From the NCBI RefSeq assembly GCF_021283545.2, contig NZ_CP128540.1, forward strand, positions 6,360,501-6,424,500: a stretch of 64,000 bases of DNA. Direction: 5' to 3'. The first letter of the stretch is position 1; every line of letters begins with the position of its first letter. The translations under genes were made by a program, and so were the position numbers. Origin of the DNA: Pseudomonas alloputida. Lineage in GTDB: Bacteria > Pseudomonadota > Gammaproteobacteria > Pseudomonadales > Pseudomonadaceae. Shown here piece after piece: positions 36,440 to 57,180 of the stretch. The notes beneath the pieces are model-generated. The model searched no databases. It was not told the origin of the DNA and saw nothing but the letters and a program-made list of their open reading frames with translations.

Positions 36440-36464
36440 AGCGACTCCTGGGAAAGGAGATGGG

Positions 36465-38544: not shown

Positions 38545-38594
38545 AGCGGGCCTCTCATGTTGGTACGGCTTTTCTCGCCGCTTTTACAGCTTCA

Positions 38595-41251: not shown

Positions 41252-41649
41252 GAAGTAGTTCCCTTTGTTGTCCGGTTTGGACGAGTTTTCACCCTTTTGG
41301 TGAGAATACCCGCCATGGTTGTGCCCGAAGAGGTGCGTCAGCAGACAGAGCAACAAAATTAAATCAGTGTAGTACCTGTGACAGGTGGCCATAGTGCTCA
41401 CGAGCCACATATAACAGGCCAAATATGACCTGTATGATCAGTGCGATACCGCCTTTAGTCCGCCAAAAAGGTATTGCCAGATCAGCACCATGGCGATGGG
41501 CTCCGTCATGATCAACTCCCAAGCTGGGTGGGAAATATCGGCCGCTGCCGTATTGCTCAGCCTAGACAACATCTCCTTGTACAACTGTGACGCCAATCAA
41601 TGCTCCTGTAAGGGTGTCGATTATTGTTGTGGTGTAGCGTCATGGCATA
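41252..41649. promoter_or_regulatory. Upstream region of the copper ATPase; end of the metal cargo
   Basis: This region holds the probable ATPase promoter. A 20-bp inverted repeat, ACAGGCC...GACCTGT with one arm mismatch, lies at 41414-41433, and a smaller dyad ACCTGTGACAGGT near 41381-41393; either could bind a metal-responsive regulator. The first part is open in the ATPase frame and encodes a hydrophobic, His-rich peptide. No separate gene is supported. Confidence 0.4.
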
Positions 41650-41664
41650 GATCATTTCTGGAGG

Positions 41665-41985
41665 TTGCTGATCCTGCTGCTGCACCAGTGGTTGCCCTTC
41701 GACACTGCGCTGGCTGCCTTGTACCCCGGCGAGGGAGTGCCCAAGCCGCTGGAGGAGTACGACGCCGGCTCCCGGAGGGGAACGCCGTCCATGCTTTCCT
41801 GCCTGGACGGCCTATACTTGCTCGACCCCTTCTACCGGGCCTGTCAGGAAGGCCTGCCCAGTGGGCTGTAACGCCTGGAGGAGATCGCTTCTGACCAGTT
41901 CCGTCAAAGCGAGTACTTCCTCAGTTACTTCCACGCCAACGCATTGGAAGACGAGGTGCAGTTCGTTCTCCAGTTGCCGGCCTAG
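41665..41985 (+). pseudogene. Fragment of a LuxR-family regulator gene with an in-frame stop
   Basis: The frame reads HQWLPFDTALAALYPGEGVP, LDGLYLLDPFYRACQEGLPS, then TAA at 41869 exactly where family members have a tyrosine codon, then RLEEIASDQFRQSEYFLSYF and a stop at 41983 after LQLPA. This is the N-terminal ligand-domain pattern of LuxR-type solo regulators. The C-terminal helix-turn-helix is absent, and the true start is probably also missing. The gene is dead by both truncation and nonsense mutation. Confidence 0.7.
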
Positions 41986-42402
41986 GTAGCCTTATGCGAT
42001 CTAACAGCTCAAGCCCCAGACCTGATACATGCGGTGCGATACAGCGCTGATCGGGTCACTCTTCGCTGTTCCCCTTCCAGCTTTGCCTTTGCCCACAGCA
42101 GACGTCGGAGATGAAACTGCTCGGCGGACTCACAAACCTGCTCCAGTGCTCTCGCACAAGGCTTTGATCTGGCCATCTTTGCTTGAATGGCTGACCCGTG
42201 GCAGGGCGTTGGCCGTGTTTTCTTCGTGCGTGTTGAGCCCAATGCGAGCGCGATCCACCATCCACAGGCCGCTACTGCCGCGCGCCAATTCTATGCCGGC
42301 ACTACTCGTCAAAAATTAGGTGAGTGCCTACCCGGCAGGCAATGGGCTACTATCGAGCCCTATCTCTATCCGAAAGGGTTAGCTCCGTTGCCAGGGAATT
42401 GC
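41986..42402. other. Gap between the LuxR remnant and the ATPase-STAS gene
   Basis: Several short open frames overlap on both strands but none has a ribosome site together with a recognisable domain. The ATPase-STAS frame stays open upstream to 42187, without a convincing start. The stretch is probably decayed sequence plus the promoter of the next gene. Confidence 0.4.
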
Positions 42403-43422
42403 ATGCAGGCCATCGATATTGAAAACGCGATCGTTCTTCCTTGGGGGCTTGGCTCAAGATCGCCCCATGACCTGTTTTCTGTGTGCTCAGAAATCATTAA
42501 CTGCCCTGGCGACATCGTTTTAGACGCTAGCAACCTCTCGTATATCGATCCGTTAGGGATGGCCACGCTGCGGGCGTTGTTTGAGAACCAGTTGGCCCAG
42601 AAGCGAGTTTCGATGCAGTTTCTGAGCAGAGACCTGACCTCCTACCTAGCCAGGATGGATTTTTTCAAGGACATTGATGTAGAGGGTGTTGATCTATCGG
42701 GAGTAGGACGTCGAAACGACCGAAGCACCTCGTTGGTGGAAATCACCAAAATCAGCGAACACCATCAAGCAGAGGCTGCAGCGTCTCGCCTCGCTAGGGC
42801 TATCACGGGAAGGTTGACTCAGTCGGACCCGGACGCTCCAGTCGACGAGTACACGGGACGGAATGAGTTTGACTCCTACCGGGGCCCTTTGGAGTATTCG
42901 CTCAAGGAGCTATTGGAAAACTCGCTTACTCACGCCCGCAGAGAGGGACGTGGTGACGCCGCCGTTTGGCTGACCTGTCAGTTTTATCCAAAATTGAACC
43001 TTGTACGCATGGCGATCGTCGATAATGGGTGTGGGTTTCTCGCGACACTGAGGAATCACCCTGAGCTTCATGACCGCACGCATTTGCACGCGATCGAGGC
43101 GGCACTCAAACCGCGAGTGAGCTGCAACCGGGGTGCGATGGCCGAGATCCTGGGTAGCGAGAACCAAGGTATCGGGTTAACAACTACCGCAAAAATTGCA
43201 GACGCGGCGGGCGGTGGTTTGATCATCGTGAGCGGCAATGGCATACATGACACAAAGCGTCGGCAGTCTCAGGAGCTGCATGATGCGCTGTGGAATGGTG
43301 TATCGATCGCGTTTAGCTGTACCCGTGAGCTGCTGCCCACCATTTCGATCAGTGACTTGCTGCCGAAGGACGATGCGGGACAGGTTGACGACGATCTCGA
43401 CCTAGATCTGAATTTCCGCTAG
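42403..43422 (+). CDS. STAS-GHKL ATPase fusion protein (partner-switch-like)
   Basis: The product is 339 residues from ATG 42403 with AGGGA at good spacing. Residues ~1-100 look like a STAS domain (DIVLDASNLSYIDPLGMATLRALF). Residues ~150-320 are a GHKL ATP-binding domain with an N-box LKELLENSLTHA, G1 box DNGCGF and G2 box GIGLTTT. There is no histidine H-box or dimerisation helix pair, so it is not an ordinary sensor kinase. An acidic tail (DDAGQVDDDLDLDLNF) ends the chain. It precedes a small STAS-like gene by 123 bp. A phospho-switch between the two is inference. Confidence 0.75.
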   Translation: MQAIDIENAIVLPWGLGSRSPHDLFSVCSEIINCPGDIVLDASNLSYIDPLGMATLRALFENQLAQKRVSMQFLSRDLTSYLARMDFFKDIDVEGVDLSGVGRRNDRSTSLVEITKISEHHQAEAAASRLARAITGRLTQSDPDAPVDEYTGRNEFDSYRGPLEYSLKELLENSLTHARREGRGDAAVWLTCQFYPKLNLVRMAIVDNGCGFLATLRNHPELHDRTHLHAIEAALKPRVSCNRGAMAEILGSENQGIGLTTTAKIADAAGGGLIIVSGNGIHDTKRRQSQELHDALWNGVSIAFSCTRELLPTISISDLLPKDDAGQVDDDLDLDLNFR

Positions 43423-43545
43423 CTCTGGCTTTTTGATAGCTCGAGGGCTAGAGTCGATCATGCAAGGAGCGGTAAATGGGAGATTCAGCGTCAACTGAAA
43501 CTCTCGGGCTGCAAAAAAGGATTATGCAATACAAGGGGTTACGAC

Positions 43546-43851
43546 ATGCAAACTCAAATTCGATTAAGTAGGGATAGTTCTATCCGAACGTACGGAATGC
43601 GAGCTTCAGCGATCCCCTACCGTACCGAAATCGAACGCTCGCTCAGTAGTGGTGAGAGCGTTGTCATAGATTTCGCTGGGAACGATGTCACTCAGTCCTT
43701 CGTCGACGAGTTGATCGGGGCGCTGATTCTGAAGGAGGGTCGCCAGGTGGTATCGCGCCTTGCCTTTGAAAACTGCACCAACGATGTCAAAGGAATCATT
43801 AAATTTGTGGTCCATGATCGAGTTCGACAGCTGCAAAAAATGCCCGCGTGA
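43546..43851 (+). CDS. STAS-like DUF4325 protein
   Basis: The 101-residue protein matches STAS-like DUF4325 by the pattern SGESVVIDFAGNDVTQSFVDELIGALILKEG, where the strand-helix unit VIDF...SFVDELIG is typical. These proteins occur beside GHKL ATPases and are thought to act as partners in signalling modules. AAGGGG precedes the ATG. It lies directly after the STAS-ATPase gene and before a strong terminator, so both probably form one transcript. Function not known. Confidence 0.75.
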   Translation: MQTQIRLSRDSSIRTYGMRASAIPYRTEIERSLSSGESVVIDFAGNDVTQSFVDELIGALILKEGRQVVSRLAFENCTNDVKGIIKFVVHDRVRQLQKMPA

Positions 43852-43869
43852 CGGATCCGCATTGAATTT

Positions 43870-43896
43870 AAGGCCCTCAATATTGAGGGCCTTTTC
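43870..43896 (+). terminator. Rho-independent terminator after the STAS-like gene
   Basis: A perfect 24-bp palindrome (AAGGCCCTCAAT / ATTGAGGGCCTT, 43870-43893) is followed by TTC and ends the plus-strand ATPase/STAS unit, 19 bp past the stop codon. The following 270 bp hold no supported gene. Confidence 0.85.
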
Positions 43897-44168
43897 ATTG
43901 GTGCCAGGCAAAAGATAGCCGTCTTGAGTGGCCCCCATAGCTCGCCCTGAAAAGCGAATGTCAGGGGACACACCGCAGAAAAGCGTTCTGTAGCGGAGGA
44001 ATACGTGGAAAACGGAGCTTAGGTTTCCTCATTGAGATGTGTAGAAATCCATCGCGACTCACCTATGCAAAGGCTGCGAAAAGCCTGAATCTACTGGGGT
44101 ATCGTGGCGTGAGATATGTGCAAAAAAATGTGCACAGCATCTGCGGATTGGAGAGCTGGCTTGGCTCC
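43897..44168. other. Gap between the STAS-like gene and convergent Sir2 gene
   Basis: No supported gene. One 64-codon frame from 44037 begins with ATG but overlaps the end of the Sir2 gene and shows no motif; it is left out. No clear hairpin serves the Sir2 side. Confidence 0.4.
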
Positions 44169-44957
44169 TTAAGTAAAACCATCAAGCTGCAACGGACCTG
44201 CAACTCCTGCGGCTTGAAGCAAAGCGGGTAATACCACCCCTGCAGGCCCAACGAGCATTATCTCTTCCGCCCCGTCCATCCCCACGTCGTCAAGGTTCAC
44301 ATGGATCACGGTTGCCCCGGCCGCCAGAGCCATATCTGGAATACCGGCTGCCGGCATGACTACGCCAGATGTACCCACCGAAATCAGCAAGTCACAGGCT
44401 TCCACAAGCCTTACTGCTGAACGCCACGCATCCTCTGGAAGATTCTCTCTGAACCAGACCACCCCAGGGCGCAACCTTCCGTTGCATCGAGTGCATCGCG
44501 GGGGCTCGATCATCTGTCCCGCCGGGGGAACCGCCAGTTGGTCTGGTGATAACTCTGCTGGCCGGTGACATCCAAAGCATTTCACGTCCATCAAGCTGCC
44601 ATGGAGGTGTATCACCGGACTGGAGCCGGCTCGTTCATGCAGATCATCGATGTTCTGGGTAACGACAGATACGTTCCAGCCAGCATCAGCTATCCGTGGA
44701 ATAGATAGATGAGCCAAGTTAGGTTTGGCCTGGCCAACCTGCTGTCGACGCCAGAGATACCAGCTCCAGACGAGAGCTGGATTCTCGCGAAAGGCGTTCG
44801 CTGTTTCGAGACGCTGAGGGTCATGCTTCGCCCAGAGCCCTGTCAGTTTGTCGCGGAAGGTCGGAATTCCGCTGTCAGCAGAGATACCTGCACCCGTGAA
44901 AAAAACGACCCTCTTGGACCTGCGCAAAGCCTCAGCAGCTCTTCGCAAATTGCTCAT
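44169..44957 (-). CDS. Sir2-family NAD+-dependent protein deacylase
   Basis: The 262-residue protein has the sirtuin core: FFTGAGISADSGIPTFRD (NAD site, residues ~20-36), TQNIDDLHERAG, the catalytic His119 in HLHG, and a zinc module with CFGC and CTRC pairs. C-terminal GTSGVVMPAAGIPDMAL and VIHVNLDD complete the NAD pocket. All catalytic and zinc residues are present, so it is a CobB-type deacylase rather than a defence NADase. The ATG at 44957 has GAGGTG upstream. It is the only minus-strand gene among plus-strand neighbours in this cargo block. Targets are unknown. Confidence 0.88.
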   Translation of the reverse strand: MSNLRRAAEALRRSKRVVFFTGAGISADSGIPTFRDKLTGLWAKHDPQRLETANAFRENPALVWSWYLWRRQQVGQAKPNLAHLSIPRIADAGWNVSVVTQNIDDLHERAGSSPVIHLHGSLMDVKCFGCHRPAELSPDQLAVPPAGQMIEPPRCTRCNGRLRPGVVWFRENLPEDAWRSAVRLVEACDLLISVGTSGVVMPAAGIPDMALAAGATVIHVNLDDVGMDGAEEIMLVGPAGVVLPALLQAAGVAGPLQLDGFT

Positions 44958-45164
44958 TGGACACACCTCAGCCCCGCAGCAGGGACACCCTTGCAGTAAA
45001 CACGGGAAAAGCCGCACATCCTAGCTAAAGCACTCGCGTTTGATCGGAAAACCAAGCGTTGAGTGCAGGGTGCCGCATACTGATCTCACCGATTTTAGGA
45101 AAGCTCCAATGGATTTCAGCTTCCCGATCTACAGCTAGCCGTAGCCCCATCGCGGGAGGTGCTT

Positions 45165-45821
45165 GTGACCACTCCCTTTGCTCACATCCAGACCCGACAT
45201 GAGCCTTCAACCGAGCCGAATAAAAGCAAGGTCGCTTTGGTTGCTACCCTGTCGATTGAAGCCAATACAGACCAGACGATCGATGCTTACCTCGGTGGGC
45301 TGCAGATGTACAACGATCTATTCGAGTGGCGGCTGGATGAGTACCCCCAGAAAGCGCTAGATCTCATCATCGACTGCTTTCTCCCCGCAGAGTCGGTGCC
45401 TCAATCCATCCTGAAGAACGGCGTTTCAGTCGGGCTCATCCGCTCCAGGGTCTTCCAAAGCGGAGACTGGATATCAGGCAAGCAATGGCTTCAGCTGGCA
45501 TCTACCTCCACCCCAGGCGGTGAAGTTGATCCCAACCAGTCACTGGCTGATGGTCAGATCTTCTCGCTTCGACCTGGGAAGGTCGACTTCTTCCCCGTTT
45601 ATGCTTTGGACGGTAGCAACGGCTATCGACCGATCAGCAGACTTAGCGACGTACTGTCCGTTCTCTCGACTCGCATGGACGAGTGGTCTATGGCGGCTTG
45701 GTTCCAATCAGAAAATTCGTCTCTGGGCGGTATCGCTCCCAAGGCCTTGCTGTTATCCGCCCCAGAACAGGTGCTAGCTGCCGCAAAGAAAAAGCCAAGA
45801 GGAAGACGTGTGAGCAGATGA
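45165..45821 (+). CDS. Unknown cargo protein with ParS/MbcA-like C-terminus
   Basis: The product is about 218 residues. GTG at 45165 has GGGAGG five bases upstream; another GTG at 45159 overlaps it. N-terminal sequence QTRHEPSTEPNKSKVALVAT is unlike known domains. Near the C-terminus, SSLGGIAPKALLLSAPEQVL resembles the toxin-binding segment of Xre/MbcA/ParS antitoxins (NxxLGGxxPxxLL). The end is basic (KKKPRGRRV). No toxin gene of the RES type follows. The resemblance is short, so function is open. Confidence 0.55.
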   Translation: MTTPFAHIQTRHEPSTEPNKSKVALVATLSIEANTDQTIDAYLGGLQMYNDLFEWRLDEYPQKALDLIIDCFLPAESVPQSILKNGVSVGLIRSRVFQSGDWISGKQWLQLASTSTPGGEVDPNQSLADGQIFSLRPGKVDFFPVYALDGSNGYRPISRLSDVLSVLSTRMDEWSMAAWFQSENSSLGGIAPKALLLSAPEQVLAAAKKKPRGRRVSR

Positions 45822-45879
45822 ACGGCTTCAGACTGCATACCGTGCCGCGTCCGATGGATGGCGTCTCAGGGGATCAAAG

Positions 45880-46176
45880 ATGAACAGTCAAGCAGCTCTC
45901 GGCAGCGATCGTAACTGGCGACCCGTCTTCCATGATTGCTATTCGACGGTGATCAAGGCGGTTGATGCTCGGTATGACGTTCGCGGTTATCTGTTATCAG
46001 AGTTGGTGAAGCTTTGCCTGAAAAATCGGGCCAAAGTTCCGCTAGCTCGGCGCGCCTACTACGAGGGATGCGTTCAGAAGGAAGCCATAGCTTTTCTGGA
46101 GCGTTACACCTCCCACCTGCTATTCGGCCCTGGCGGCCGACTCTCGCCGCAGGAATACCGATACGACACATATTGA
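45880..46176 (+). CDS. Small cargo protein of unknown function
   Basis: The 98-residue frame starts MNSQAALGSDRNWRPVFHDC and has a basic middle (KLCLKNRAKVPLARRAYYEG). The start has AAAG/GGGG-like purines a few bases upstream (GGGGATCAAAGATG). It lies 58 bp after the preceding gene and 54 bp before the next, suggesting an operon of three small genes. No domain is recognised. It has neither signal peptide nor membrane segment, so a cytoplasmic protein is expected. Confidence 0.55.
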   Translation: MNSQAALGSDRNWRPVFHDCYSTVIKAVDARYDVRGYLLSELVKLCLKNRAKVPLARRAYYEGCVQKEAIAFLERYTSHLLFGPGGRLSPQEYRYDTY

Positions 46177-46230
46177 TGCTGTCAAAGGCGCGACTCTGGC
46201 TTAACCAATTGTCCCAACGTTGGCAGAGGC

Positions 46231-46542
46231 TTGATGATGAAAATCACTGGTCGTGTAGAAACGGAAGCGGTGGTCGACGTGAGCTGCGACGTATGCGGCT
46301 CCTCCACACGTTTGGAAACCGGCAGTCTTCAGTATGGGGTGCTCCACGCGCACTGGGGCTTCGGTGCACTGCATGACGGAGAGCGCTATGAGGTGCACCT
46401 ATGTGAACCTTGCTTCTTCCAGACCATCGCTTACCTCAAGCAAGAGCGGCGCACAGCCAACATGTTTGAAGGTGATCCACAGCAGCCCGAGGATGACTTC
46501 GGCCTCGCTTCCAGGGATGACTTTTTCCGTGATGGTCACTGA
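46231..46542 (+). CDS. Small zinc-ribbon-like cargo protein
   Basis: The 103-residue protein has CDVCG near residue 19-23 and CEPC near residue 59-62, giving a four-cysteine zinc ribbon around a central LQYGVLHAHWGFGALHDGER segment. The C-terminus is acidic (DPQQPEDDFGLASRDDFF). Similar short proteins are found widely in Pseudomonas islands without known function. A hairpin just after the stop would end the transcript against the convergent tnsC gene. The first ATG is doubled; either could be used. Confidence 0.6.
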   Translation: MMMKITGRVETEAVVDVSCDVCGSSTRLETGSLQYGVLHAHWGFGALHDGERYEVHLCEPCFFQTIAYLKQERRTANMFEGDPQQPEDDFGLASRDDFFRDGH

Positions 46543-46546
46543 TTTG

Positions 46547-46580
46547 AAAGCCGAGCTGGACATGCTACTTCGGCTTTTTA
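46547..46580 (+). terminator. Terminator between the small cargo genes and tnsC
   Basis: Arms AAAGCCGA (46547-46554) and TCGGCTTT (46570-46577) are followed by TTA on the plus strand. It stands four bases past the stop of the zinc-ribbon gene and overlaps the 3' end of the convergent tnsC. Confidence 0.7.
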
Positions 46581-47911
46581 GGGGGTGAGGACGGGGACTG
46601 TGAGTCCGCATATCGATGGAAGGCTAGTGCTAGGTCTTCGTCGGTCGCCTTTGGAAGCGGTTTACGACGGGGCGCTTTGGCCGGAGCTTTCTCATCCGGT
46701 TGGGTAATCTGCCTAAGTAGGGAGCGCTCAGTCTCGGTAGCCGACGAATCGAAGACCTTTGTCTGTACACGCTGATCACGGTCTGTCCTGTTAAAGCTCA
46801 CCACGTTCGACTTGTATTCAACAGGTAAGTCAAATGGACAGCGCAGGTCCAAATGCCCCCCTTGATTGCCTTTGCTAATGGCCAGCAATTGCAACTCTTC
46901 GACCTCTTTCGAGCTGGTGGTATACGCGCTCGATCTGTAGGCCTTGTGGAGGTCGTCGACTTCAATCCGGTTTCTGCCGGCGACTCGGCATTCGATGTAG
47001 GCAAGCTTCAGCAGTTGTACGACAAGCCGCTTGATACCAAAAGTGGAACGGTAAAGCTCAGCCGCAAATTCATCCTTTCCTGAACTGATACGGCCGTCAC
47101 TGAGCCTCATGCACTCGCCTACGTACTCTGCCCAATCCTGGCTCCTTGGATCCTCGGGCAGCATTACCCTGGGTTGAGAAAGCAGCCTCTGCTTGTCCTC
47201 ACTGTTGCGACGAAACAGCTTGTGCCCGAGGCTATAGTTGGACACAAAAATCGTCGGCACTCCGATGGCTACCATCGTCAATAGTATGTCGGTCACTTTG
47301 GACGCGCCCATGCCGGTGTTGATGTGCTGCGTCTCATCCAGGACAACTGTTAAAACCCCGTCCCGGTTGGCGCGACGGCGACACTCCACAAGCAGTTTTG
47401 CCAGGTTACCACCCCGCCCCTCATGACCACTTCCATGAATGAAGTCTAGTAGGAGCTGTTTACCACTCGCTTTACCGCGGGCGCTCGCATACCACATCGA
47501 GGCAAGCTCTATGCTGCCCTCGAACAGGTCACAAGTCAGTTCTACCGGCGGGGGCATCGCTCTTCGAAGAGCAGCAATCGTCTGGCTTTTACCGACCCCA
47601 GCTAGGCCGGTAAGGCAAATCGGTGAAGCTTCCACGTCGGGCGGATTAAAGATCCTTCCGGCGTACTCTGCTTCACTCCTGAAATTTTTGAGGTTGTGCA
47701 AATATGCCAAACCGATCATTTCTTGAATAAAGGCAAGCGAGAACTGGTTGGGGAGGTACATCTCTTTGAGCCGCTCAGCGAGTAGCTCAGCACCGAGCAA
47801 GGGAGGAAGCGCCTCCAAATCCTTTATCGGATCTGGTCGAACAGTCACTCGACTACGGATGGATTCGATGTCCATATAACCATCGAAGCGAGCTTCAATG
47901 ATTCTGTTCAT
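46565..47911 (-). CDS. tnsC: Tn7-type transposition regulator TnsC (AAA+ ATPase)
   Basis: The 448-residue protein has Walker A GLAGVGKSQ at residues 102-110 and Walker B VVLDETQHIN at ~189-198, the pattern of TnsC and related TniB ATPases. TnsC links the target-selection protein (TnsD/TniQ) bound at the insertion site to the TnsAB transposase and gives target immunity. Its start overlaps the 3' end of tnsB by four bases, completing a tnsA-tnsB-tnsC operon. The basic Lys/Pro-rich end (RKPLPKATDE ... PPKKPK) may contact TnsAB. It appears intact. Confidence 0.88.
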   Translation of the reverse strand: MNRIIEARFDGYMDIESIRSRVTVRPDPIKDLEALPPLLGAELLAERLKEMYLPNQFSLAFIQEMIGLAYLHNLKNFRSEAEYAGRIFNPPDVEASPICLTGLAGVGKSQTIAALRRAMPPPVELTCDLFEGSIELASMWYASARGKASGKQLLLDFIHGSGHEGRGGNLAKLLVECRRRANRDGVLTVVLDETQHINTGMGASKVTDILLTMVAIGVPTIFVSNYSLGHKLFRRNSEDKQRLLSQPRVMLPEDPRSQDWAEYVGECMRLSDGRISSGKDEFAAELYRSTFGIKRLVVQLLKLAYIECRVAGRNRIEVDDLHKAYRSSAYTTSSKEVEELQLLAISKGNQGGHLDLRCPFDLPVEYKSNVVSFNRTDRDQRVQTKVFDSSATETERSLLRQITQPDEKAPAKAPRRKPLPKATDEDLALAFHRYADSQSPSSPPKKPK

Positions 47912-49338
47912 TTTTTAGCGCCCCTGAATCGATTGAAATCGTCCGTGTCGCGCTGGGCAGCACCTCCTTTCGAGGGCCGCCCAAATTTTCTCTCGCCAGC
48001 ATCCCATTCTTCGCCTGTATTCTGTTTGAATCTGTCTTCGAAATGCTGCTCATGCGCAGGGCGCTCGTCTCTGAGATCAGCAGCAGCTCCTCGACGTACC
48101 TGATCAATGTCTTGAAGATCACGCAAGGAAATATCGACGGAGCTTTGCGGACTACGCGATGGCCGCATGAAGTCTAACTGGTATAAAACCCCTTTAACTT
48201 CTATCCATATATGACGAACACACATGACCAAAACATATACGGAGGTGTTGATGACACCTTGCCGGGCCACCAAATCAAAAATTCCTGTTTCTTCCAATTC
48301 ACGGGATCGGTATTTTCGCCCGTAAAAATAGACACCGTCCTTTCTTATCGCAGCTGGTCGTACATCCAGAAACTGCCTCACAGCCGTTTCGAAGGGGACC
48401 CCAATCGAGGAATCTCGTCCACGCATACTCCAATAGCAGTAAATGTCATGTGGGGTAGGCTTAATGCCGGCCAGAATCATCTCCTCGTCCATACGCAGGC
48501 CAGCGTCAGAGGTATGGTTATCCTTCAGGACCCGCACAATCTCCCGCTTGGCCATCTGTACGAAATCGAGCTTGCTGTGAAAATAGGTCGGCTGCCCGAG
48601 GGTTTTCTTGTCTCTCGGGTGTGAGGATTCGACAGTAGCCTTGGACTGACCTGAGTAGATTGGCGTCAGATCTACCGACTTTAACCAGTGAATCTCTGGA
48701 TCTACTTCGTACCCTGCAGCAGGTCCTCTATCAAGCACCATAGAGCCCGACAAACCAGCACTCGGCCATTCTTCGGCACTGATTTCAATACCGTACTGCT
48801 CGCAGAATTTAACTTTGTCACATGCCATGCAGTAGATTGCCATGCGATAAGCGGCCATATTTTCTTTGCCTTCCGAAAAGCCAATGCCAAGCACCATCCC
48901 TGACAACGCACAAACAGCACGGACGACACAAAAGCTGTCAACTGCACTGCCTTCAGTCAACCCAGATAGTTTCTCGGAAATATTATATCCGTCAAACTCA
49001 ATTCGCTGACTCACATTAATTAGGTTGTCGGCAAAACTTCCCTCTGAACCAGATTGAGCACGAGCCCGGTGCGCTCCTTTCAAAGCGATACGGAGCTGTT
49101 TTGCGCTGATTAGTTTAGATATCCAATACCTAAACTGTGGGAATGAAGGGAATGGCATGCCTTTAGGATGTCTGTATTCAACAGCCTCTCCCGCCAGCTT
49201 GTATGCATTGCAGCCAAACTCTCCTATAAGGATGTCGCTGTAGATCTTATTTTGTAAGGGATCCATCATCCCCACATTCCAACCGTCCACCTGATTCCCG
49301 ATGCTGTGCTCCCGATTTCTTTCTGGAGCCAGCCCGCC

Positions 49339-49698
49339 ATGATGCGCCCCGACAGCAAAGTCGAAAAAGTCTACCTCTACCCCAAGCCCGTGGACTTTCG
49401 AAAGTCCATCGACGGCCTCACTGCCCTGGTCGAACTGGACATCAAGGTCGCCGTGTTCGACCCGGTACTTTTCGTCTTCCTCAATAAAGCCCGTAACCGC
49501 ATCAAGGTGTTGTATTGGGAGCGCAACGGCTTCTGCCTTTGGCTCAAGCGCCTCGAAGCCGAGCGTTTCAAAACTTCACCCGACGCGACCGACGAAGCTA
49601 TCGTACTGACCGTCCAGGAACTGAATTGGCTACTCGACGGTTTCGATCTCTGGCGCAACCGTCCGCATCAGGTTTTGACTCCTCGTTTCGTCGCCTGA
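49339..49698 (+). CDS. tnpB: IS66 family accessory protein TnpB
   Basis: The product is about 119 residues. KVYLYPKPVDFRKSIDGLTA followed by VFLNKARNRIKVLYWERNGF and LWLKRLEAERF is the standard IS66 TnpB (Orf2) signature. TnpB is needed for IS66 transposition by an unknown mechanism. Two adjacent ATGs (49339, 49342) are possible; GGAG lies about ten bases upstream. It is followed by tnpC after 18 bp. Confidence 0.92.
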   Translation: MMRPDSKVEKVYLYPKPVDFRKSIDGLTALVELDIKVAVFDPVLFVFLNKARNRIKVLYWERNGFCLWLKRLEAERFKTSPDATDEAIVLTVQELNWLLDGFDLWRNRPHQVLTPRFVA

Positions 49699-49716
49699 CC
49701 GGGTATAATCCGGGCC

Positions 49717-51249
49717 ATGATTTCAGTGCCCGATAACCTTCCTGACGACCCTGCCGCGCTCAAACTACTGCTTGCGCAGTTGTTGGCCGAGCGCACGGTC
49801 GACAAAGGTCAGATCGTCGACCTTAAAGAACAGGTCAAGCTGCTGCGTGACCGATTATTCAATCGCAAGTCCGAGCAAACCGTCGAGTCCAACACGCCCC
49901 AACTGGCGTTGTTCAATGAACCCGAAAGTCAGTGGGTACCTACCGCTGATGATGCCGACGAAGAAGTTGTTGCGCCAAGCAAGCAGCGCGGCAAACGCAA
50001 GCCACTGTCGGCTGACCTGCCACGCATTGAAGTCATTCATGACTTGCCCGAGCACGAACTGACTTGCGCCTGTGGTTGCCGCAAACACGTGGTTGGCGAG
50101 CAAACCAGCGAACAACTCGACATCGTGCCGATGCAGATCCGTGTGCTTAAACACGTACGCAAAATCTATGGCTGCCGTGGCTGCGAAACCGCGCCGGTCA
50201 CCGCTGACAAGCCGGCCCAATTGATTGAAAAGAGCATGGCCAGTCCCAGCGTGCTGGCGATGTTGCTAACCACCAAGTACGTCGATGGCCTGCCGCTGCA
50301 CCGCTTCGAAACGGTGCTGAACCGACATGGTATCGAGATCCCCCGGCAAACCCTGGCCCGCTGGGTCATCCAGTGCAGCGAACACTTTCAGCCACTGCTG
50401 AACCTGATGCGTGACCGCCTGCTGGAAAGCCCGGTGATCCATTGCGATGAAACTCGCGTGCAGGTGCTCAAAGAGCCGGATCGTGATCCGACCAGTCAAT
50501 CCTGGATGTGGGTGCAGGCCAGTGGCCCGCCTGATCGACAAGTCGTGCTGTTCGATTACACCACCAGCCGCGCGCAGGAGGTGCCGCTGCGCCTGCTGGA
50601 GGGCTATCGCGGTTACGTGATGACCGATGATTACGCCGGTTACAACGCGTTGGCGCTACAGCCGGGCGTTGAACGACTGGCGTGCATGGCGCATGTCCGG
50701 CGTAAATTCGTCGAAGCGCAGAAGGTGCAGCCTAAGGGCAAGAGCGGTCGCGCCGATGTTGCGCTGACGATGATCAACAAACTGTATGGCATCGAACGCG
50801 ACCTCAAGGATGCCAGCGATGAACAGCGATTCATCGGTCGTCAGGAACGAAGCCTGCCGATCCTTGAGCAGTTGAAAAGTTGGCTCGACAAGACGCACTC
50901 ACAGGTGACACCGCAAAGCGTACTGGGCAAGGCGGTGCTTTACCTGGCAAACAACTGGAACCGCCTGGAGCGGTATGTCGAGGCGGGCCACCTGCCGATC
51001 GACAACAACCTGGCAGAGCGGGCCATAAAGCCGTTTGTGATCGGGCGCAAAGCTTGGCTGTTCAGTGACACGCCCAAGGGAGCCACGGCTAGCGCGCAGA
51101 TCTACAGCTTGGTCGAAACCGCCAAGGTCAACGGCCAAGAGCCCTATACGTGGCTGCGCCACGTCCTGGAGCGACTGCCGCACGCCTCATCGGTAGCAGA
51201 CTACGAAGCGCTGCTGCCATGGAACTGTTCGCCAGAGATGCCACGGTAA
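49717..51249 (+). CDS. tnpC: IS66 family transposase TnpC
   Basis: The 510-residue transposase has an N-terminal leucine-zipper-like helix ([20 protein letters not shown]), a zinc-finger-like segment ([10 protein letters not shown] ... CRGCE), and the DDE catalytic core: [10 protein letters not shown] (first Asp), [12 protein letters not shown] (second Asp) and [20 protein letters not shown] (Glu). This is full length for the family with all three acidic residues, so the IS looks capable of movement apart from the absent tnpA. Its reading direction is opposite to the interrupted tnsB. Confidence 0.95.
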
Positions 51250-51965
51250 CTTTGGCTTCCACCTTGTGGTAGGTGGGGTTCATGGATCGGTTACCTTATT
51301 TTGAGTCTTGTGGGGGGATTTATTGGCGAGGAACCCCTTTAGCAACCTCTGCTGCATTTCTGCATCGCAACGATAACCATGCCTTTTTCCCTTGCGAGAG
51401 GGCCGACCAAGCTTCGTCATACGCCCTGGCCCTTCTCGATTCCATGCCCCAATACGGTGGAGAGGTGGCAGCAAGGACCACTTAGTCCGACCAAACACCA
51501 TGTATGAGTAGAACCAGAGCCTTGTCCTGGCTGCGTTCTGATGGGGTCGTTGTGCTTTGGCGTAGGCGTTAATTAGGGCGTCAGGATCATCGCTCGCGAG
51601 GATTTCATTTTGGCGAGCAACCAAGCCAGATATCGCAGCAAAACGCTTGTCCACCTTCTGCTCGTAGCTTTCTTTCTTTGAAGCTCGCCGATACTCCAGA
51701 TGCTCGATGGCAACGCCCTCGATGGGTGTAAGCCATGGAGGACTTGAATCGGCCGATCCATCCTCAACCAGCCACCCATTCTCGACTGCCTCCTCAAAAT
51801 CAAACTGGCTCAGTTGGATCAGGTGGGTGCTGATGTGTTTGCCATCGTCTTTGAATTCGACCAAGCGAACACGGTTTTGCCGGCCATCGCTGACCAATAG
51901 GTGATATACATCGCCTTGTGGAAGGTTACGAAACCCCTCGGGGGCTATGATTCGCGAGCCTGCCC

Positions 51966-52928
51966 TCATGGCGCGGCCTCTTCAAAAAGCGAGCCGAACT
52001 CCTGGAGCAGATCGCATCCACCGGTAATCAACGGGCGATCGATCAAGATAGGTTCGCTGAAGTCGACTTGAAGCTTTCGGTCCCAAATCAGTTGGTAGAT
52101 CTTGGCTATGAACTGGTCACGGAAGCCCCACCGAGCACCGTATTCAATCGCCACGTAGGCCACGGGCTTCCCGACCTGAACAGCCTCAGCAATCGCACCG
52201 ACAAAGTCTTGAAGCAGATTCGGTTCAAGTGAAAAATCAAGACCGTGCATACCAAACAACAGGTCTAGATTCGCCTGAATAGTGGGCGATATCAGATCTC
52301 GGGAAACCTCTACGGTCCGGATGCCGGCGCTGGCGTAGTATCGGCGCTCGAGCTCTCCCCGAAGCTCGGCATGGTCGCGGTCCTTCTTTTGTTGAACAGG
52401 GGTCTTCGCAGACGTGCTTCGACGTTCTCGAAATTCCTGGGCCTGGTCCTTGACCGTCCAGTTGATGGCAAACGGTTCTCCTCGACAGTTGAAGAGGAAG
52501 AGCAGGAGGTCGCCTTGGTACGGGTACGGGACCCAGCCCCTGTTTCCGCTCGCGTCTTCGACTACGATTTCATGATGTTTGAAACCGATCTCTCTTGCGA
52601 TATCCATGGTGCCGCGGAGAGGGGGCGGGAATGTGCCCTTCGTCAATGGGTGCCCTTTCAGTGGGTGCCCTGTGTTCACTGGCCAAAGCATCTTCTGCTC
52701 GTGCAGCTCAAAAAGCTCGGGGTGGAAGAGAGCTAATTGAGCAAACACCTTCTCTGGGTGGGAAAGGAGATGAATCGTGCGCCCCAGCTTTCGGCTATGC
52801 AGTCTGCTAATGCGAGAGCCTTTAGGTGCCTCTCGTGGAACCGCCAGCGTGGACGGTACATATTCCTGGCCCCATTCGAACCGGGCCTGGCGTTTCATGA
52901 TCAGGTCAAATCGTTCCTGCGGTTTCAT
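51966..52928 (-). CDS. tnsA: Tn7-type endonuclease TnsA
   Basis: The product is 320 residues from the ATG at 52928 (MKPQERFDLIMKRQARFEWG); the frame is open 79 codons further but that stretch overlaps the promoter region. The endonuclease core is visible as a Glu-rich helix (LFELHEQKMLW), YQGDLLLFLF (Asp) and INWTVK (Lys), in line with the E-D-K active site of TnsA. The C-terminal part (YYASAGIRTVEVSRDLIS) is the TnsC-contacting domain. TnsA cuts the 5' ends, allowing cut-and-paste movement. The stop overlaps tnsB by four bases. Confidence 0.85.
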   Translation of the reverse strand: MKPQERFDLIMKRQARFEWGQEYVPSTLAVPREAPKGSRISRLHSRKLGRTIHLLSHPEKVFAQLALFHPELFELHEQKMLWPVNTGHPLKGHPLTKGTFPPPLRGTMDIAREIGFKHHEIVVEDASGNRGWVPYPYQGDLLLFLFNCRGEPFAINWTVKDQAQEFRERRSTSAKTPVQQKKDRDHAELRGELERRYYASAGIRTVEVSRDLISPTIQANLDLLFGMHGLDFSLEPNLLQDFVGAIAEAVQVGKPVAYVAIEYGARWGFRDQFIAKIYQLIWDRKLQVDFSEPILIDRPLITGGCDLLQEFGSLFEEAAP

Positions 52929-53609
52929 CCAAGCTTTCCAATCTAACCAGGATTTGTTGCTGAAGGCGCACGTTGGGGATAACAACGCGCACACCGGCAA
53001 AACCCTTATCCTGCGGGCAGGTAACCGCGTTTCCGGTTGTGGATAACGCGGAGATTCTTGTGGATGAGCGAATCCGTGCGAAACTTGACGTTTCACATGC
53101 AAGGGATAGACAATGGAGGAGTCAGGTGCCTTTTCTGACTTATCCACAAGGGCCCAAGGTCGCACTTGGGCCTTTGTCTATCTCATTTTCAGCGCTCTCG
53201 TTTAGCTAGCTGTCGTCTGAATTTCTATCGTTAGGTCTACCTTAGGCGTCTCCGCCGATTGTGATCTTGCCCATGCTCACGAACCCTTCTTTCAGGGTTC
53301 GCTGACGCAGCGCTTTTGGGCTACGAGCTTGGTTAACTCAATATGTTAACGCTGGAAATTCCTAGCTGACAACAAGTTTGCGCGCAAACCACACATAACT
53401 TTCAAATACTCCCACCTAGCAAATTTCCGCCTATACGAAGCGCTCACAGGATTCCGGTCCATGCCAGGACCATGCTGCCTTGGTCCGCCCCTGAGAACCG
53501 CCGAAGACGCTTCAAAACTGAAAATTCTAACCAGCTCTAGACCGATAATTTATTGGACTTTAAGAGTCCAAGACAATGTATTAGATTAATATTCTTTGAG
53601 GCATATCTC
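52929..53609. promoter_or_regulatory. Divergent promoter region between tnsA and tnsD
   Basis: No separate gene is supported here. A hairpin with arms GGCCCAAG (53151-53158) and CTTGGGCC (53165-53172) followed by a T-rich run reads on the plus strand, and a smaller 7-bp-armed hairpin GAACCCT/AGGGTTC lies at 53281-53300. Promoters for tnsABC and for tnsD must be in this stretch; base composition drops sharply toward AT from about 53500, marking the tnsD gene as compositionally foreign. Confidence 0.5.
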
Positions 53610-55208
53610 ATGAACCTCAAAGGCAAGCATTTACCCTTTTTACACTGGCTCCCAGATGAATGTCTTTACAGCGTATGCAGCCGCCAGCATATTCTTTGGG
53701 GCAACCCGTCACCTACAGATACACTGAGTTTTCTTTTTGGAAGCGGGTATAAAAAATTTGCACACGACTTTCCAAGTAACCTGAGTCTATTAATCGAGTC
53801 TGCAAAGTCTACTTGGGGAACCCCAGAGGAATTGATATCTGAACACACCATTGCACCCATTTTCTTTCCTTTCCAATCTTCTGATCACATTCAGGAACTG
53901 AAACAAGCATTGATGGGGCCCAAAATTGGATCTATGAAGTATAGGCTTGGACTTGTGACTGGCCGCTTCGGTGGTGCGCACCCTCTTAAGGCGTGTGTTA
54001 AATGCATGGCAACTGACCGATCAGTTCTGGGCGCCACATATTGGCACTTATCTCACCAGCTTCCTGGTGTTACGACTTGTCCAGTGCATGGAGTCTTGCT
54101 CTCGGAGTCAATCGAGAACAGGCAGTGGTCCAGGGGTTTTCAGTGGCTTCTTCCTGATGAATTAGCCCTCAGCGTAACTGATCAATCGGCCATAGATCCT
54201 GCAACCTTCGAAGCACTACAAAACATGTCTGAGTTAGCGGTGGACCTGTGGAAATCAGGCTCCTCCTGCCAGTTTGATAGCACTACAGTCGCTAACGTTT
54301 ACAAGGAAGCCTTCAGTAATTTTGGCCGCTCCCAGAAGTCTCGCGATGCTGCTGCCGACCGCTTTGCTGAGCTCTGTGCAATGCTCAAACAGCACCCGCC
54401 TTTCACCGCTTTGCCAACCACGCGCAAGTGTGCAATAGGGTTCATTTCTCAAATGACCCGTAAGCCCCGTGGTTACTGCCATCCGTTGAAGCATCTGACC
54501 CTGATTTGGTGGCTATTCGGGAGCTTAGAATCATTCGTTAAGGCCTATCAACATGCCGCGAACCAGCAGAAACTTCCAGGGACTAGCCCCTCAGTGAAGC
54601 TTAACTTAAATAACTCTTTCGTTAATCCTATTTCAGCTCAAATAAGGAGAACTGGAGCCCCGAAACCCAAAAAGCTATTTAATGACTTGAAGGAGAAAAT
54701 CCTCCGGGAACTGATGACTGGCTCTAGCAAAAAAGAGGTCTGTGTTAACTTTGAGATATCTATGAGCACGGTAAATCGGCTACTACGGCTTAACCCGAGT
54801 GTCGACGAGAAGATAAAAATATACTTTAAACTCAAGAAACTTGAGGAACAGCGTACCTTGTGGCGCTGCGCCGTGGACAAATCGCCCTTCGCCAGCGCGA
54901 ATGTAATTAAGCGGTCAGTACCCAACGTCTATGCATGGCTCTACAGAAACGATCAGTCTTGGTTACTTTCGCAAACAGGCTCACTACCAAGTGGCAGGGC
55001 CGGCAACCATGTCGCAATTGACTGGGATGCCCGGGATGAGAATTTGTGTACCTTGATTAAGAAGGTACTGGTAACGTCGACCACCGAACCCAGAAAAATC
55101 CGAAAACGTGACTTGTACCAAATGGTACCTAGTCTTTTTTCTTCGCTTGAGCAGAAGTCGCACTATCCAAAGACGAGGCAGCTCGTCTCCGAAATATCTC
55201 AGCAGTAG
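53610..55208 (+). CDS. tnsD: Target-selector TnsD (TniQ family)
   Basis: The 532-residue protein begins MNLKGKHLPFLHWLPDECLY, typical of TniQ/TnsD N-termini. A CCCH zinc finger is seen as Cys129, Cys132, Cys157 and His160 (ACVKCMATD ... TTCPVHG). The C-terminal half has helix-turn-helix segments (LMTGSSKKEVCVNFEISMST) suited to DNA binding. TnsD of Tn7 binds the end of glmS, and this protein's length and place suit that job. It is divergent from tnsABC. AT content is higher than in the neighbouring chromosome. Start chosen for GAGG upstream; 19 further codons are open. Confidence 0.85.
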   Translation: MNLKGKHLPFLHWLPDECLYSVCSRQHILWGNPSPTDTLSFLFGSGYKKFAHDFPSNLSLLIESAKSTWGTPEELISEHTIAPIFFPFQSSDHIQELKQALMGPKIGSMKYRLGLVTGRFGGAHPLKACVKCMATDRSVLGATYWHLSHQLPGVTTCPVHGVLLSESIENRQWSRGFQWLLPDELALSVTDQSAIDPATFEALQNMSELAVDLWKSGSSCQFDSTTVANVYKEAFSNFGRSQKSRDAAADRFAELCAMLKQHPPFTALPTTRKCAIGFISQMTRKPRGYCHPLKHLTLIWWLFGSLESFVKAYQHAANQQKLPGTSPSVKLNLNNSFVNPISAQIRRTGAPKPKKLFNDLKEKILRELMTGSSKKEVCVNFEISMSTVNRLLRLNPSVDEKIKIYFKLKKLEEQRTLWRCAVDKSPFASANVIKRSVPNVYAWLYRNDQSWLLSQTGSLPSGRAGNHVAIDWDARDENLCTLIKKVLVTSTTEPRKIRKRDLYQMVPSLFSSLEQKSHYPKTRQLVSEISQQ

Positions 55209-55484
55209 ATTTTTAATGATTGACTGTTACTTGTACGAGCTCACGGAAATACGGGTACATATGACTGTAGCTCGTGAAAAGTCCCTCAATCTATGGTACT
55301 TTTTTGATTTATGCGTGAGTAACTCCTTAGCGTTTAAGAGTTAGGCCACATGAGACTTACATTGAAGCAACAGCCGCCTCTGTTCCGGGGTAGCAACGGC
55401 CTCACTCGTGCCGATTAGTGTGCCAAACCGCCTGGTAGTGAATGTCCATGAGGTGCCGCTCCACCAGCCGCAGGGCAATCCACC
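55209..55484. other. Gap between tnsD and the antitoxin-like remnant
   Basis: No supported gene. The sequence is AT-rich just after tnsD and contains one short open frame (55216-55344) without a recognisable motif. A RES-type toxin gene would be expected near 55390-55480 on the minus strand if the antitoxin were part of a complete module, but none is seen. Confidence 0.4.
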
Positions 55485-55751
55485 TCAGCAGTAAACGCCG
55501 TACTCGATCCTCATGAGGTAGTCGCAGACTTGCCGATAGCCTTGGGCATCAGCTAGAAGGCTACAGGGGATCCGTCGATCTAGGCCGATTGCTGGCCGCT
55601 TTAGCCATTCAGCCGCCAGGCGATTGTTGCCAAGAACGTAGGCCGCCTGGCCTTGAACCTGTTCTCGACGCGCAACGAAACAACGGTGCTGGCTGCTCCA
55701 GCAATGGGAAGGAGCGAAAGGACAGGGACCGAGCAGGTCAGTTGTAAGCAT
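55485..55751 (-). CDS. MbcA/ParS/Xre antitoxin-like protein, probably truncated
   Basis: The frame encodes 88 residues. From AAEWLKRPAIGLDRRIPCSL through LADAQGYRQVCDYLMRIEYG and VYC it matches the toxin-binding domain of MbcA/ParS antitoxins (DUF2384), which ends in the same RIExGVYx pattern. Full antitoxins are 120-160 residues with an N-terminal helical domain; only a short divergent leader is here. No RES toxin gene is adjacent. It is therefore either a solo antitoxin or a relic. Confidence 0.65.
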   Translation of the reverse strand: MLTTDLLGPCPFAPSHCWSSQHRCFVARREQVQGQAAYVLGNNRLAAEWLKRPAIGLDRRIPCSLLADAQGYRQVCDYLMRIEYGVYC

Positions 55752-55792
55752 AGCGCCTCCGCTACCACGCGACCGCGAGGGTAAGGCTTACC

Positions 55793-56974
55793 TTACTGCA
55801 ACTGACGCTCACAGGTGTCATCGATAGATGACCGGTTCCCCAGCAGGGATCTGCTCGTGGTCACTGGCGCCCAACCGGTGGCTCCAAGTCGAGGAACCGC
55901 TGGGAGTGATGCTTTTACCAGTCTGGGACTGAAACGCAAGTCGCGTCTTGAATCAGCTACGTTGCAGCAACGATAGAGTCTTGGTCGGCGGTCTCGGAGT
56001 GAGTGTGCCTTGTAGTGGTCAAAATCGCGGAGTGACCATAAGGCAACTCCATGGCGGTAATCTTCTTCGATGTAGTGATCAAAGTAATCACTGCGAATTT
56101 GATAAGTGCTCCAACAAGAGTCAATCAGTGCTGAACCCGATTCTAGGCTTAAGTAATGGCCTAGGAAGTCATCAAACCCCTCGTAGATAAGCGCTATTAA
56201 ATCAAGCAGGCCATACTGCCGATCTTCGTGGAGGATAAACCCATAACCACGTTCCTTACGCAATTCAGTGTCAGCTATAAATTCATCAATAGCTTCCCTA
56301 AAGCTTTGATCAACAATTCGATTGTCTATGTTTTTGAGTTTGCTTTCGAGCACCCGTAGAACCGTTTCAAGTGCAAGGTGGTGCTCAAGGAGGCAGATCC
56401 TTTCGTAGAATTGTGCCAGCCGCAATGCCAATGGGTCCCTGTTGGCCGCAGGCCTTGCGCTGCCTAGGCTGCGCCCGCAACATCCGCTCCACATTACCTG
56501 GACAGAGTGGCCATCGCGAGAAAATGGCTGCTCACAGAACTGGCAGTACGAGAGCAAATCGACGTTGTGCTTCGCGCACACAGTTACATGTGGGTGAAGA
56601 CGTCGCCAATAAGAGTAACCTAGCGACTGAATATCTTCATTCACGCACAATGGACAGTAGGTTCGAGTATCTGCGAGGGAGTCAAAACAGTATTGCCCAT
56701 ATACATACTCTGCGCCAGAGTAAGCTAAAAACTTTGCTGGCTTAAACACACTTCGAAAGGGGTAATCGCTATGCAAATGCACCAACTTGTTAAAGCCGTA
56801 ACAGCCATGCCAGCCCATGATACTGCCTACGAGCTTTACCTGCCTGTTGCTCCAGCTGAAGTAACGGAGCTCCGCCGACTTCAGAATATCTAAGTCAGAG
56901 TTACGGAATTGTAGGTAAAGGTTTCGTTCAACATAAGAACGGAGCGATTCATCAGGTTGGATTCGCAACAGCAT
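55793..56974 (-). CDS. Second TniQ-family protein
   Basis: The 393-residue protein starts MLLRIQPDESLRSYVERNLY, the TniQ N-terminal pattern. Two zinc-binding groups follow: Cys107-Cys110 with Cys133-His136 (YCPLC ... VCAKH) and Cys144-Cys147 (YCQFC). After residue ~170 it diverges into an acidic, aromatic-rich domain and a basic end. It is shorter than TnsD and lies next to the right end of the element, reading toward tnsD. As a second TniQ it may direct the element to a target other than glmS, replacing the role of TnsE; this is inference. Confidence 0.78.
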   Translation of the reverse strand: MLLRIQPDESLRSYVERNLYLQFRNSDLDILKSAELRYFSWSNRQVKLVGSIMGWHGCYGFNKLVHLHSDYPFRSVFKPAKFLAYSGAEYVYGQYCFDSLADTRTYCPLCVNEDIQSLGYSYWRRLHPHVTVCAKHNVDLLSYCQFCEQPFSRDGHSVQVMWSGCCGRSLGSARPAANRDPLALRLAQFYERICLLEHHLALETVLRVLESKLKNIDNRIVDQSFREAIDEFIADTELRKERGYGFILHEDRQYGLLDLIALIYEGFDDFLGHYLSLESGSALIDSCWSTYQIRSDYFDHYIEEDYRHGVALWSLRDFDHYKAHSLRDRRPRLYRCCNVADSRRDLRFSPRLVKASLPAVPRLGATGWAPVTTSRSLLGNRSSIDDTCERQLQ

Positions 56975-57040
56975 GGATTGCTGGTCCCTAGGGAGCAGGA
57001 AAGGTGAGCGAGTGGAGGGTCAGGCGAAGGGCTGGGACCA

Positions 57041-57118
57041 TCGCAGGAGCCGATGAGACAGACCTCACCGGCTCCTGCGACAGCTTTAATTCTCTAGCGA
57101 CAGTTTTAATTCTCTAAA
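57041..57118. repeat. Right end of the Tn7-like element
   Basis: Two tandem 19-bp TnsB-type repeats occur at 57077-57095 (one mismatch) and 57097-57115 (exact), and the outer 27 bp (57092-57118) form the perfect inverted repeat with the left end. Just inside is a hairpin with 12-bp perfect arms TCGCAGGAGCCG (57041-57052) and CGGCTCCTGCGA (57069-57080), which could act as a terminator against readthrough from glmS. Confidence 0.8.
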
Positions 57119-57180
57119 ATCAAAGTTGATCAACACCTGACTACCCGTTACTCGACAGTCACCGACTTGGCCAGATTACG
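57119..57180 (-). other. attTn7: attTn7 target region at the 3' end of glmS
   Basis: The last glmS codons (NLAKSVTVE, stop at 57148-57150) plus about 30 bp beyond form the classical TnsD recognition and insertion region. TnsD binds within the coding end, and insertion occurs about 25 bp past the stop. The transposon's right inverted repeat begins 30 bp past the stop, which fits. glmS itself remains intact. Confidence 0.85.

What the first reader, a model, noticed from the sequence alone, without database searches (positions are those of the whole stretch)
47908..51969. TnsB is split by an IS66 element, so the transposon is probably locked in place
The IS66-family insertion (49254-51294) with the exact 8-bp duplication CTTATTTT interrupts tnsB; both halves remain in frame with no other damage, giving a ~670-residue native protein. 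tnsA, tnsC and two TniQ genes are intact. The element is therefore a recently immobilised copper island that would need TnsB in trans or precise IS loss to move.
Basis: seen in the sequence. Interest (0 to 1): 0.7.

Follow-up and report, generated by a model that had tools for sequence, protein, structure and literature searches.

The report
Copper transposon with its transposase split
A 36.6-kb Tn7-like transposon carrying copper-resistance genes sits beside glmS in a Pseudomonas chromosome, and a young IS66 insertion has split its transposase gene tnsB, so it can probably no longer move by itself; this is clear but ordinary decay of a mobile element.

Summary
A 2,041-bp IS66-type element (49254-51294), flanked by the 8-bp duplication CTTATTTT, splits tnsB of a Tn7-like element inserted 25 bp downstream of glmS (attTn7). 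I mapped the element: 20475-57122, 5-bp duplication AAGTT, TnsB-type end repeats. The break falls upstream of the DDE catalytic part. No second TnsB of this type was found in the genome, and the end repeat was found only on this element. The IS has seven full copies, six identical and one with a single mismatch, so the hit is young. tnsA (conserved start 52928, 320 aa, not 399), tnsC, tnsD and the small tniQ are open. "Locked in place" is well supported, though untested at the bench. Uninterrupted ~670-aa TnsB is the rule in relatives: 25 of 26 named loci; 37 of 40 assessable copies in two genome searches. Other tnsB breaks: IS21-type in P. cerasi, IS30-like in G613, IS5-type on plasmid CIP-10. 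The CIP-10 copper element is 99.96-100% identical, over the stretches compared, to one with an open core (G057) and one with a broken tnsD (P. capeferrum 20A1). New member of a known kind, modest interest.

The parts
20475..57122 (.). whole Tn7-like copper element (36,648 bp with the IS)
   Evidence: L end GGATTTAGAG and R end TGATTTTAGAG with TnsB-type repeats, flanked by AAGTT; the same end scheme with duplications CTCTT and GTTCT in G328 and G007
20470..20474 (+). 5-bp target duplication AAGTT, left copy
57123..57127 (+). 5-bp target duplication AAGTT, right copy, attTn7 position beside glmS
20480..20611 (+). left-end repeats TAGAGAATTAAAACTGTCGC (20480, 20592) and a weaker one at 20539
57077..57116 (-). 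right-end tandem 20-bp repeats
21626..41422 (.). copper cargo: cytochrome c, CopB, CopA-type multicopper oxidase, response regulator and CusS-type sensor, outer-membrane efflux protein followed by 488-aa and 1052-aa ORFs (efflux adaptor and pump by homology to the annotated CIP-10 cluster and G057), P-type ATPase
46565..47911 (-). tnsC, 448 aa, AAA ATPase, open; overlaps the tnsB stop by 4 bases
47908..49253 (-). tnsB 3' part (445 residues after the duplication; DDE catalytic part)
49246..49253 (+). 8-bp IS duplication CTTATTTT, left copy
49254..51294 (+). IS66-type insertion sequence (tnpB, tnpC)
51295..51302 (+). 8-bp IS duplication CTTATTTT, right copy
51295..51969 (-). tnsB 5' part (225 codons, N-terminal region)
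51966..52928 (-). tnsA, 320 aa, TnsA endonuclease relative (1f1z, E 6.7e-4)
53610..55208 (+). tnsD-type TniQ protein, 532 aa
   Evidence: PF15978 and PF06527; frame conserved in relatives
55793..56974 (-). second, smaller TniQ, 393 aa, beside glmS
57148..58983 (-). glmS (host), the target gene
20425..20469 (+). relic of an older related element's right end, abutting the left AAGTT
   Evidence: two 20-bp-spaced repeats in right-end arrangement

Best explanation
A Tn7-like element of a Pseudomonas family with tnsABC, TnsD and a second TniQ inserted at attTn7 beside glmS, bringing copper-resistance cargo. Later an IS66-type element that was multiplying in this genome jumped into tnsB at codon 225. 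TnsB is the DDE enzyme that binds the transposon ends and does the 3' cutting and joining. The split separates the N-terminal region from the catalytic part, so no complete transposase can be made and the element cannot excise or insert by itself. TnsA, TnsC and the TniQ proteins alone do not transpose in Tn7 (established knowledge). The cargo is unaffected and is passed on vertically. Shown: anatomy, boundaries, duplications, no second TnsB of this type found, youth of the IS. Inferred: loss of mobility, vertical inheritance, and any polarity of the insertion on tnsC.
For: IS boundaries and 8-bp duplication. tnsB pieces 89-90% identical to an intact natural 670-aa TnsB. TnsB resembles Tn7 TnsB; D310, D397 and E431 (P0002 numbering) are invariant in 33 sequences and lie after the break at residue 225. 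Element ends with a perfect 5-bp duplication at attTn7. No second TnsB of this type and no other copies of the end repeat within 3 mismatches. Seven IS copies, six identical and one with a single mismatch. dN/dS 0.063-0.091 for the tnsB parts against two relatives. tnsB is one open frame in 25 of 26 named loci and in 37 of 40 assessable copies of the genome searches.
Against: No functional test. Two other Tn7/Tn5053-type loci and three more rve-type frames are in the genome; use of foreign ends is unlikely but not excluded. A fragment beginning at the codon of the junction is recorded as a cluster of 19 member sequences on 2 contigs (P0001); the listing marks it as a protein the window itself encodes, so it may stem partly or wholly from this strain. 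How common the split state is in the species is unknown. No structure model could be made, so the domain border is taken from sequence alignment only.
Confidence: 0.9

Rival explanations
1. The two tnsB pieces are both expressed and assemble into a working two-part transposase; the C-terminal piece is translated from a start in the IS end (460-aa ORF starting at 49290).
For: Both pieces are open and highly conserved, and the break lies outside the catalytic part.
Against: The IS copies are nearly identical, so the pieces can look conserved simply because the break is young. The promoter scan found 2 promoter-like sites in 49000-53600 against 2.6 expected, neither at the IS (a weak, consensus-only scan). 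25 of 26 named relatives keep one polypeptide.
Confidence: 0.03
2. The element is still mobilised in trans by another transposase in the cell.
For: The genome holds a second complete tnsABC-tniQ set (L072) and a TnsB/TniQ-type pair near 1,372-1,375 kb.
Against: Those transposases are not detectable relatives of this TnsB, and the stretches held around them carry no such end repeats (genome-wide). A relative with matching ends could still arrive on a plasmid: of 72,556 plasmid records two hold a TnsB of this family over most of the query, one 79% identical (P. koreensis) and one 57% (CIP-10).
Confidence: 0.05
3. The insertion is an assembly artefact.
For: Multi-copy IS elements can cause false joins.
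Against: Single-contig genome, exact 8-bp duplication, tns gene order as in relatives. P0001, on 2 contigs, starts at the codon of the same junction.
Confidence: 0.02

Closest known systems
Tn7 (E. coli) and Tn6171/Tn6552 (Acinetobacter; abstract and passages of PMC8190619 seen)
   Same: tnsABC plus TnsD; Tn6171 lies 25 bp after glmS with a 5-bp duplication and has several TnsB-type repeats at each end. Tn6552 also has a tns gene (tnsD) interrupted by an IS, with a 9-bp duplication
   Different: TnsA and TnsB here are too far from Tn7 to match Pfam models; a second TniQ; tnsD divergently placed; TnsE was not looked for; here tnsB is the broken gene
Pseudomonas Tn7-like copper elements: P. putida W619 tnsABCD with copSRABMG (passages of PMC3056050 seen); Tn7-like copper transposon of P. 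syringae pv. syringae (Aprile et al. 2021, seen only as a reference entry; paper not held)
   Same: Tn7-like genes joined to copper resistance genes in Pseudomonas
   Different: The passages seen report no IS in tnsB; I did not compare those sequences directly
Copper element of Pseudomonas sp. CIP-10 plasmid, P. capeferrum 20A1 and genome G057
   Same: Same gene plan, homologous cop/cus cargo (CopA 93.5% identical), broken tnsB in CIP-10
   Different: TnsB C-terminal part only 57% identical; IS5-type insert at about codon 215 instead of IS66 at 225; the G057 copy has all core genes open
IS66 family (ISPpu13-type and other relatives on Pseudomonas plasmids)
   Same: TnpB and TnpC, 8-bp duplication
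   Different: No tnpA recognised; the plasmid matches are all below 90% identical (best listed 84-86%)

Membership tests
Tn7-like transposon (attTn7 type) | TnsB-type DDE transposase | tested here: met
   profile of 33 relatives hits Tn7 TnsB 7pik, E 1e-9 (and, weakly, a 55-residue terminase chain, E 0.0079); invariant D310/D397/E431 in P0002 numbering; the copy itself is split
Tn7-like transposon (attTn7 type) | TnsA endonuclease | tested here: met
   only hits are 1f1z and 1t0f, Tn7 TnsA, E 6.7e-4 and 6.8e-4, weak but specific; no Pfam match
Tn7-like transposon (attTn7 type) | TnsC AAA ATPase | tested here: met
   AAA_22 1.1e-6; G105-V-G-K108 invariant in the 10 aligned sequences, window included; no PDB sequence match at E up to 1
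Tn7-like transposon (attTn7 type) | TnsD/TniQ target selector | tested here: met
   PF15978 6.3e-30 and PF06527 in the 551-aa frame; PF06527 in the 393-aa frame
Tn7-like transposon (attTn7 type) | insertion downstream of glmS with 5-bp duplication and repeated end sites | tested here: met
Tn7-like transposon (attTn7 type) | TnsE | not tested
   no search for TnsE was made
Tn7-like transposon (attTn7 type) | active cut-and-paste transposition | not testable with these tools
   needs an experiment; predicted lost in this copy
IS66 family | DDE_Tnp_IS66 transposase and TnpB | tested here: met
IS66 family | 8-bp target duplication | tested here: met
   6 of 7 copies exact, the seventh 7 of 8
IS66 family | tnpA (first ORF) | tested here: not met
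   only tnpB and tnpC found; that IS66 elements lacking tnpA are known is recalled

The most novel reading that the evidence does not exclude
Copper-bearing members of this Tn7-like family are repeatedly and quickly fixed in place by insertions into core genes, because selection keeps the cargo while the transposase is dispensable or costly. Of five copper-bearing copies seen, three have a core gene broken by an insert (window tnsB, CIP-10 tnsB, 20A1 tnsD) and two are open (G057, G149). Among the assessable copies of the genome searches not seen with copA nearby, 3 of 37 have an insertion-type break (G192, G613, G675). The four tnsB breaks fall at about codons 133, 190, 215 and 225, all upstream of the catalytic part. 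Weakness: CIP-10, 20A1 and G057 are one element, the copper set was partly found by chance, the plasmid copy L096 (tnsC and tniQ in several frames) is in neither count, and cargo on other contigs of drafts would be missed.
Probability: 0.1. Interest if true: 0.5.

Novelty: new member of a known kind. Interest (0 to 1): 0.28.

Why it matters
It is a clean example of how a mobile resistance island can become a fixed chromosomal trait: one young IS insertion in the transposase, everything else in place. The comparison also gives a natural series: one copper element, at least 99.96% identical over the compared stretches in three strains, once with an open core, once with tnsB broken and once with tnsD broken.

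Tried and rejected
Tried: that a second TnsB rescues the element (rejected for the same type); that the 399-aa TnsA is real (rejected); that the 11-kb segment 9259-20424 is the body of the older element whose right end remains (no left-end motif found near 9.3 kb and no match in the other fetched loci; undecided); that copper cargo goes with broken core genes (two open copper copies, G057 and G149; small and non-independent sample; kept only as the novel case). The G613 element has no recognisable tnsA or tnsB N-terminal part within the 20 kb held, next to an IS30-like transposase (Pfam HTH_38 and rve; the name IS30 is recalled). G076 is cut by its contig and was not counted. The divergent copies G387 and the second of G544, and G214 and G280 (short tnsD match), are hard to judge for tnsC or tnsD; their tnsB is open. 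The precomputed Pfam label PF27135 on many TnsB relatives did not appear in my own Pfam scan of three of them. No structure model could be made.

All 16 structure requests met a full queue. One alignment request had wrong coordinates and was repeated with correct ones. Literature searches that could have shown an IS-split tnsB in this family; the listings shown were partly capped (20 of 48, 12 of 19, 12 of 35), and none of the listings or passages seen described it.
Full report
Observation. The window lies at 6,360,501-6,424,500 of a one-contig 6,438,596-bp genome. It is placed in the same genus as genomes that correspond to named Pseudomonas records found here; the species itself is not named. 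The IS66-type element occupies 49254-51294 with CTTATTTT on both sides, carries tnpB and tnpC, and is oriented against tnsB. The two parts of tnsB match residues 1-226 and 223-670 of a natural 670-aa TnsB, P0002, at 89% and 90%, each in one open frame.

Is it TnsB? Neither part matches Pfam or NCBIfam at E 0.001, so I tested it otherwise. P0002 alone hits Tn7 TnsB (7pik, 2.9e-9) and one chance match (adenylate kinase, 0.71). A profile of 33 relatives hits 7pik at 1e-9, covering an N-terminal stretch (profile 156-271) and the end of the catalytic part (360-433), and, far weaker, a 55-residue terminase chain (0.0079). D310, D397 and E431 are invariant in the 33 sequences; the D-E spacing of 34 is that of ShTnsB (D287, E321; passages of PMC9527255 seen). 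That paper assigns end recognition to the N-terminal domains NTD1/2 of ShTnsB. Codon 225 lies before the first catalytic residue and, by the alignment, inside the matched N-terminal region. The split thus separates most of the N-terminal region from the catalytic part; the exact domain border could not be modelled, because the structure server was full at every one of 16 requests.

The element. A 20-bp repeat, TAGAGAATTAAAACTGTCGC, stands at 20480 and 20592 facing in from the left, and twice in tandem (one copy with one mismatch) at 57077-57116 facing in from the right. The ends GGATTTAGAG (20475) and TGATTTTAGAG (57122) are flanked by AAGTT on both sides. Two relatives, G328 and G007, show the same end scheme with perfect 5-bp duplications of their own, CTCTT and GTTCT. 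The right end lies 25 bp after the glmS stop codon, the position reported for Tn6171. The element is 36,648 bp, of which 2,049 bp are the IS and one copy of its duplication. Cargo includes copB, copA, a two-component pair, an efflux operon and a P-type ATPase.

State of the other core genes. tnsC is open and conserved. tnsD is open from 53610. The small TniQ is open; its C-terminal end varies in relatives.

Can anything replace TnsB? A search of the whole genome with the C-terminal part finds only itself and two chance-level matches (E 0.61 and 0.91) at E up to 10. The end repeat with up to three mismatches occurs four times in the genome, all in this element. Other transposition loci exist: a complete tnsA-tnsB-tnsC-tniQ set at about 6,172-6,177 kb (L072) and a TnsB/TniQ-type pair at about 1,372-1,375 kb. 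The stretches held around both lack these end repeats. Three more rve-type frames of 350, 686 and 605 aa were not examined.

Age. The IS is present in seven full copies, the window's included, six identical and one with a single mismatch; 6 of 7 have exact 8-bp duplications, the seventh 7 of 8. dN/dS against L013 and L015 is 0.063-0.091 for the two tnsB parts, in the range of tnsA (0.073-0.081) and below tnsC and tnsD (0.111-0.156). The gene therefore shows no sign of long decay. In the protein collection, a fragment beginning with the codon at the junction (P0001) is recorded with 19 member sequences on 2 contigs; the listing marks it as a protein the window itself encodes. It may be the same strain in other assemblies and is no proof of a wider spread.

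Relatives. Of 26 named loci, 25 have tnsB as one frame; the exception is P. cerasi (L035), with an IS21-type insert at about codon 133. Among the same 26, tnsD is broken in one (L021), is not held in two and is open in 23; tnsA is open in 24 and cut by the locus end in two; tnsC is open in 25 and not held in one. G544 has two copies, giving 41 copies. One (G076) is cut by its contig and was not assessed. tnsA is split by about 2.4 kb in one more, G675 (the insert was not examined). The named and unnamed sets overlap, so these counts must not be added.

Same element, three fates. On the plasmid of Pseudomonas sp. CIP-10, typed as conjugative, the copper element has tnsB cut at about codon 215 by an IS annotated as IS5 family with TTAG on both sides. 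P. capeferrum 20A1 (L021) carries the same element at 99.97-100% identity, with tnsB uninterrupted at that very point but tnsD broken by a 1.2-kb insert with a 325-aa ORF that I did not search. G057 carries it at 99.96-100% identity to both, with all core genes open, beside a glmS 97.9% identical in protein to the window's; G057 has about 6.4 kb more in the cargo. These identities cover the stretches held (up to 31 kb of the CIP-10 locus and 21 kb of the 20A1 locus), not the whole element. So members of this family have moved between plasmid and chromosome, and breaks in core genes arise on a very short time scale. The window's element is a different lineage (TnsB C-terminal part 57% identical) with homologous copper cargo (CopA 93.5%).

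Against a wider claim. G057 and G149 carry copA within 25 kb of an open core, so copper cargo does not go only with a broken core. The excess of broken copies among copper-bearing ones (3 of 5 against 3 of 37) rests on few, partly identical and partly unsystematically found elements. Cargo of the other set could be missed in draft genomes, since copA was accepted only on the same contig.

Known or new. IS-interrupted tns genes are in print: Tn6552 has tnsD interrupted by ISAba12 (PMC8190619, abstract and passages). Tn7-like elements with copper genes in Pseudomonas are in print (PMC3056050, passages; Aprile et al. 2021 seen only as a citation). Tandem tniQ/tnsD pairs are common: 1,048 loci against 2,905 with one gene (PMC10293859, passages). 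The finding is a new, well-delimited member of a known kind.

Noticed in passing
window 20425-20469: Two 20-bp-spaced repeats in right-end arrangement directly abut the left AAGTT: a relic of an older related element's right end, so attTn7 was occupied before. The rest of that element was not recognised.
   Followed up: partly
L072 (G000 6,168,000-6,184,000): A second, complete Tn7-like set (TnsA with PF08722, TnsB 645 aa, TniB-type TnsC, TniQ) lies next to an ORF that looks like comM (recalled motif), like Tn6022-type elements.
   Followed up: partly
L083 (G000 1,364,000-1,382,000): A 671-aa rve-type frame and a 666-aa TniQ-type frame lie within about 2.5 kb: a third Tn7/Tn5053-type locus.
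   Followed up: no
L097, L021, L130+L161: One copper element at 99.96-100% identity (stretches held) in a plasmid typed as conjugative, P. capeferrum 20A1 and G057, with different core genes broken or none.
   Followed up: yes
L027, L031, L034, L035: The tnsABC block reads toward glmS while the small tniQ stays beside glmS, the reverse of the window's arrangement: the core seems inverted between fixed ends.
   Followed up: no
window 44169-45017; L014, L016, L026, L029, L032, L038: A Sir2-family gene is also found near the tns core in 6 of 26 named relatives, in different positions and strands.
   Followed up: no
G000 5,579,922-5,585,824: Two direct IS66 copies lie 1.8 kb apart; the first (L007) has a 7-of-8 duplication, which may point to recombination.
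   Followed up: no
window 9259-20424: In G057 the element's left flank continues directly with the homologue of window 9258 and below; the 11 kb in between has no counterpart there.
   Followed up: partly
L096 (P. koreensis P19E3 plasmid p1): A 78% identical TnsB, open, but tnsC and the small tniQ lie in several frames.
   Followed up: no
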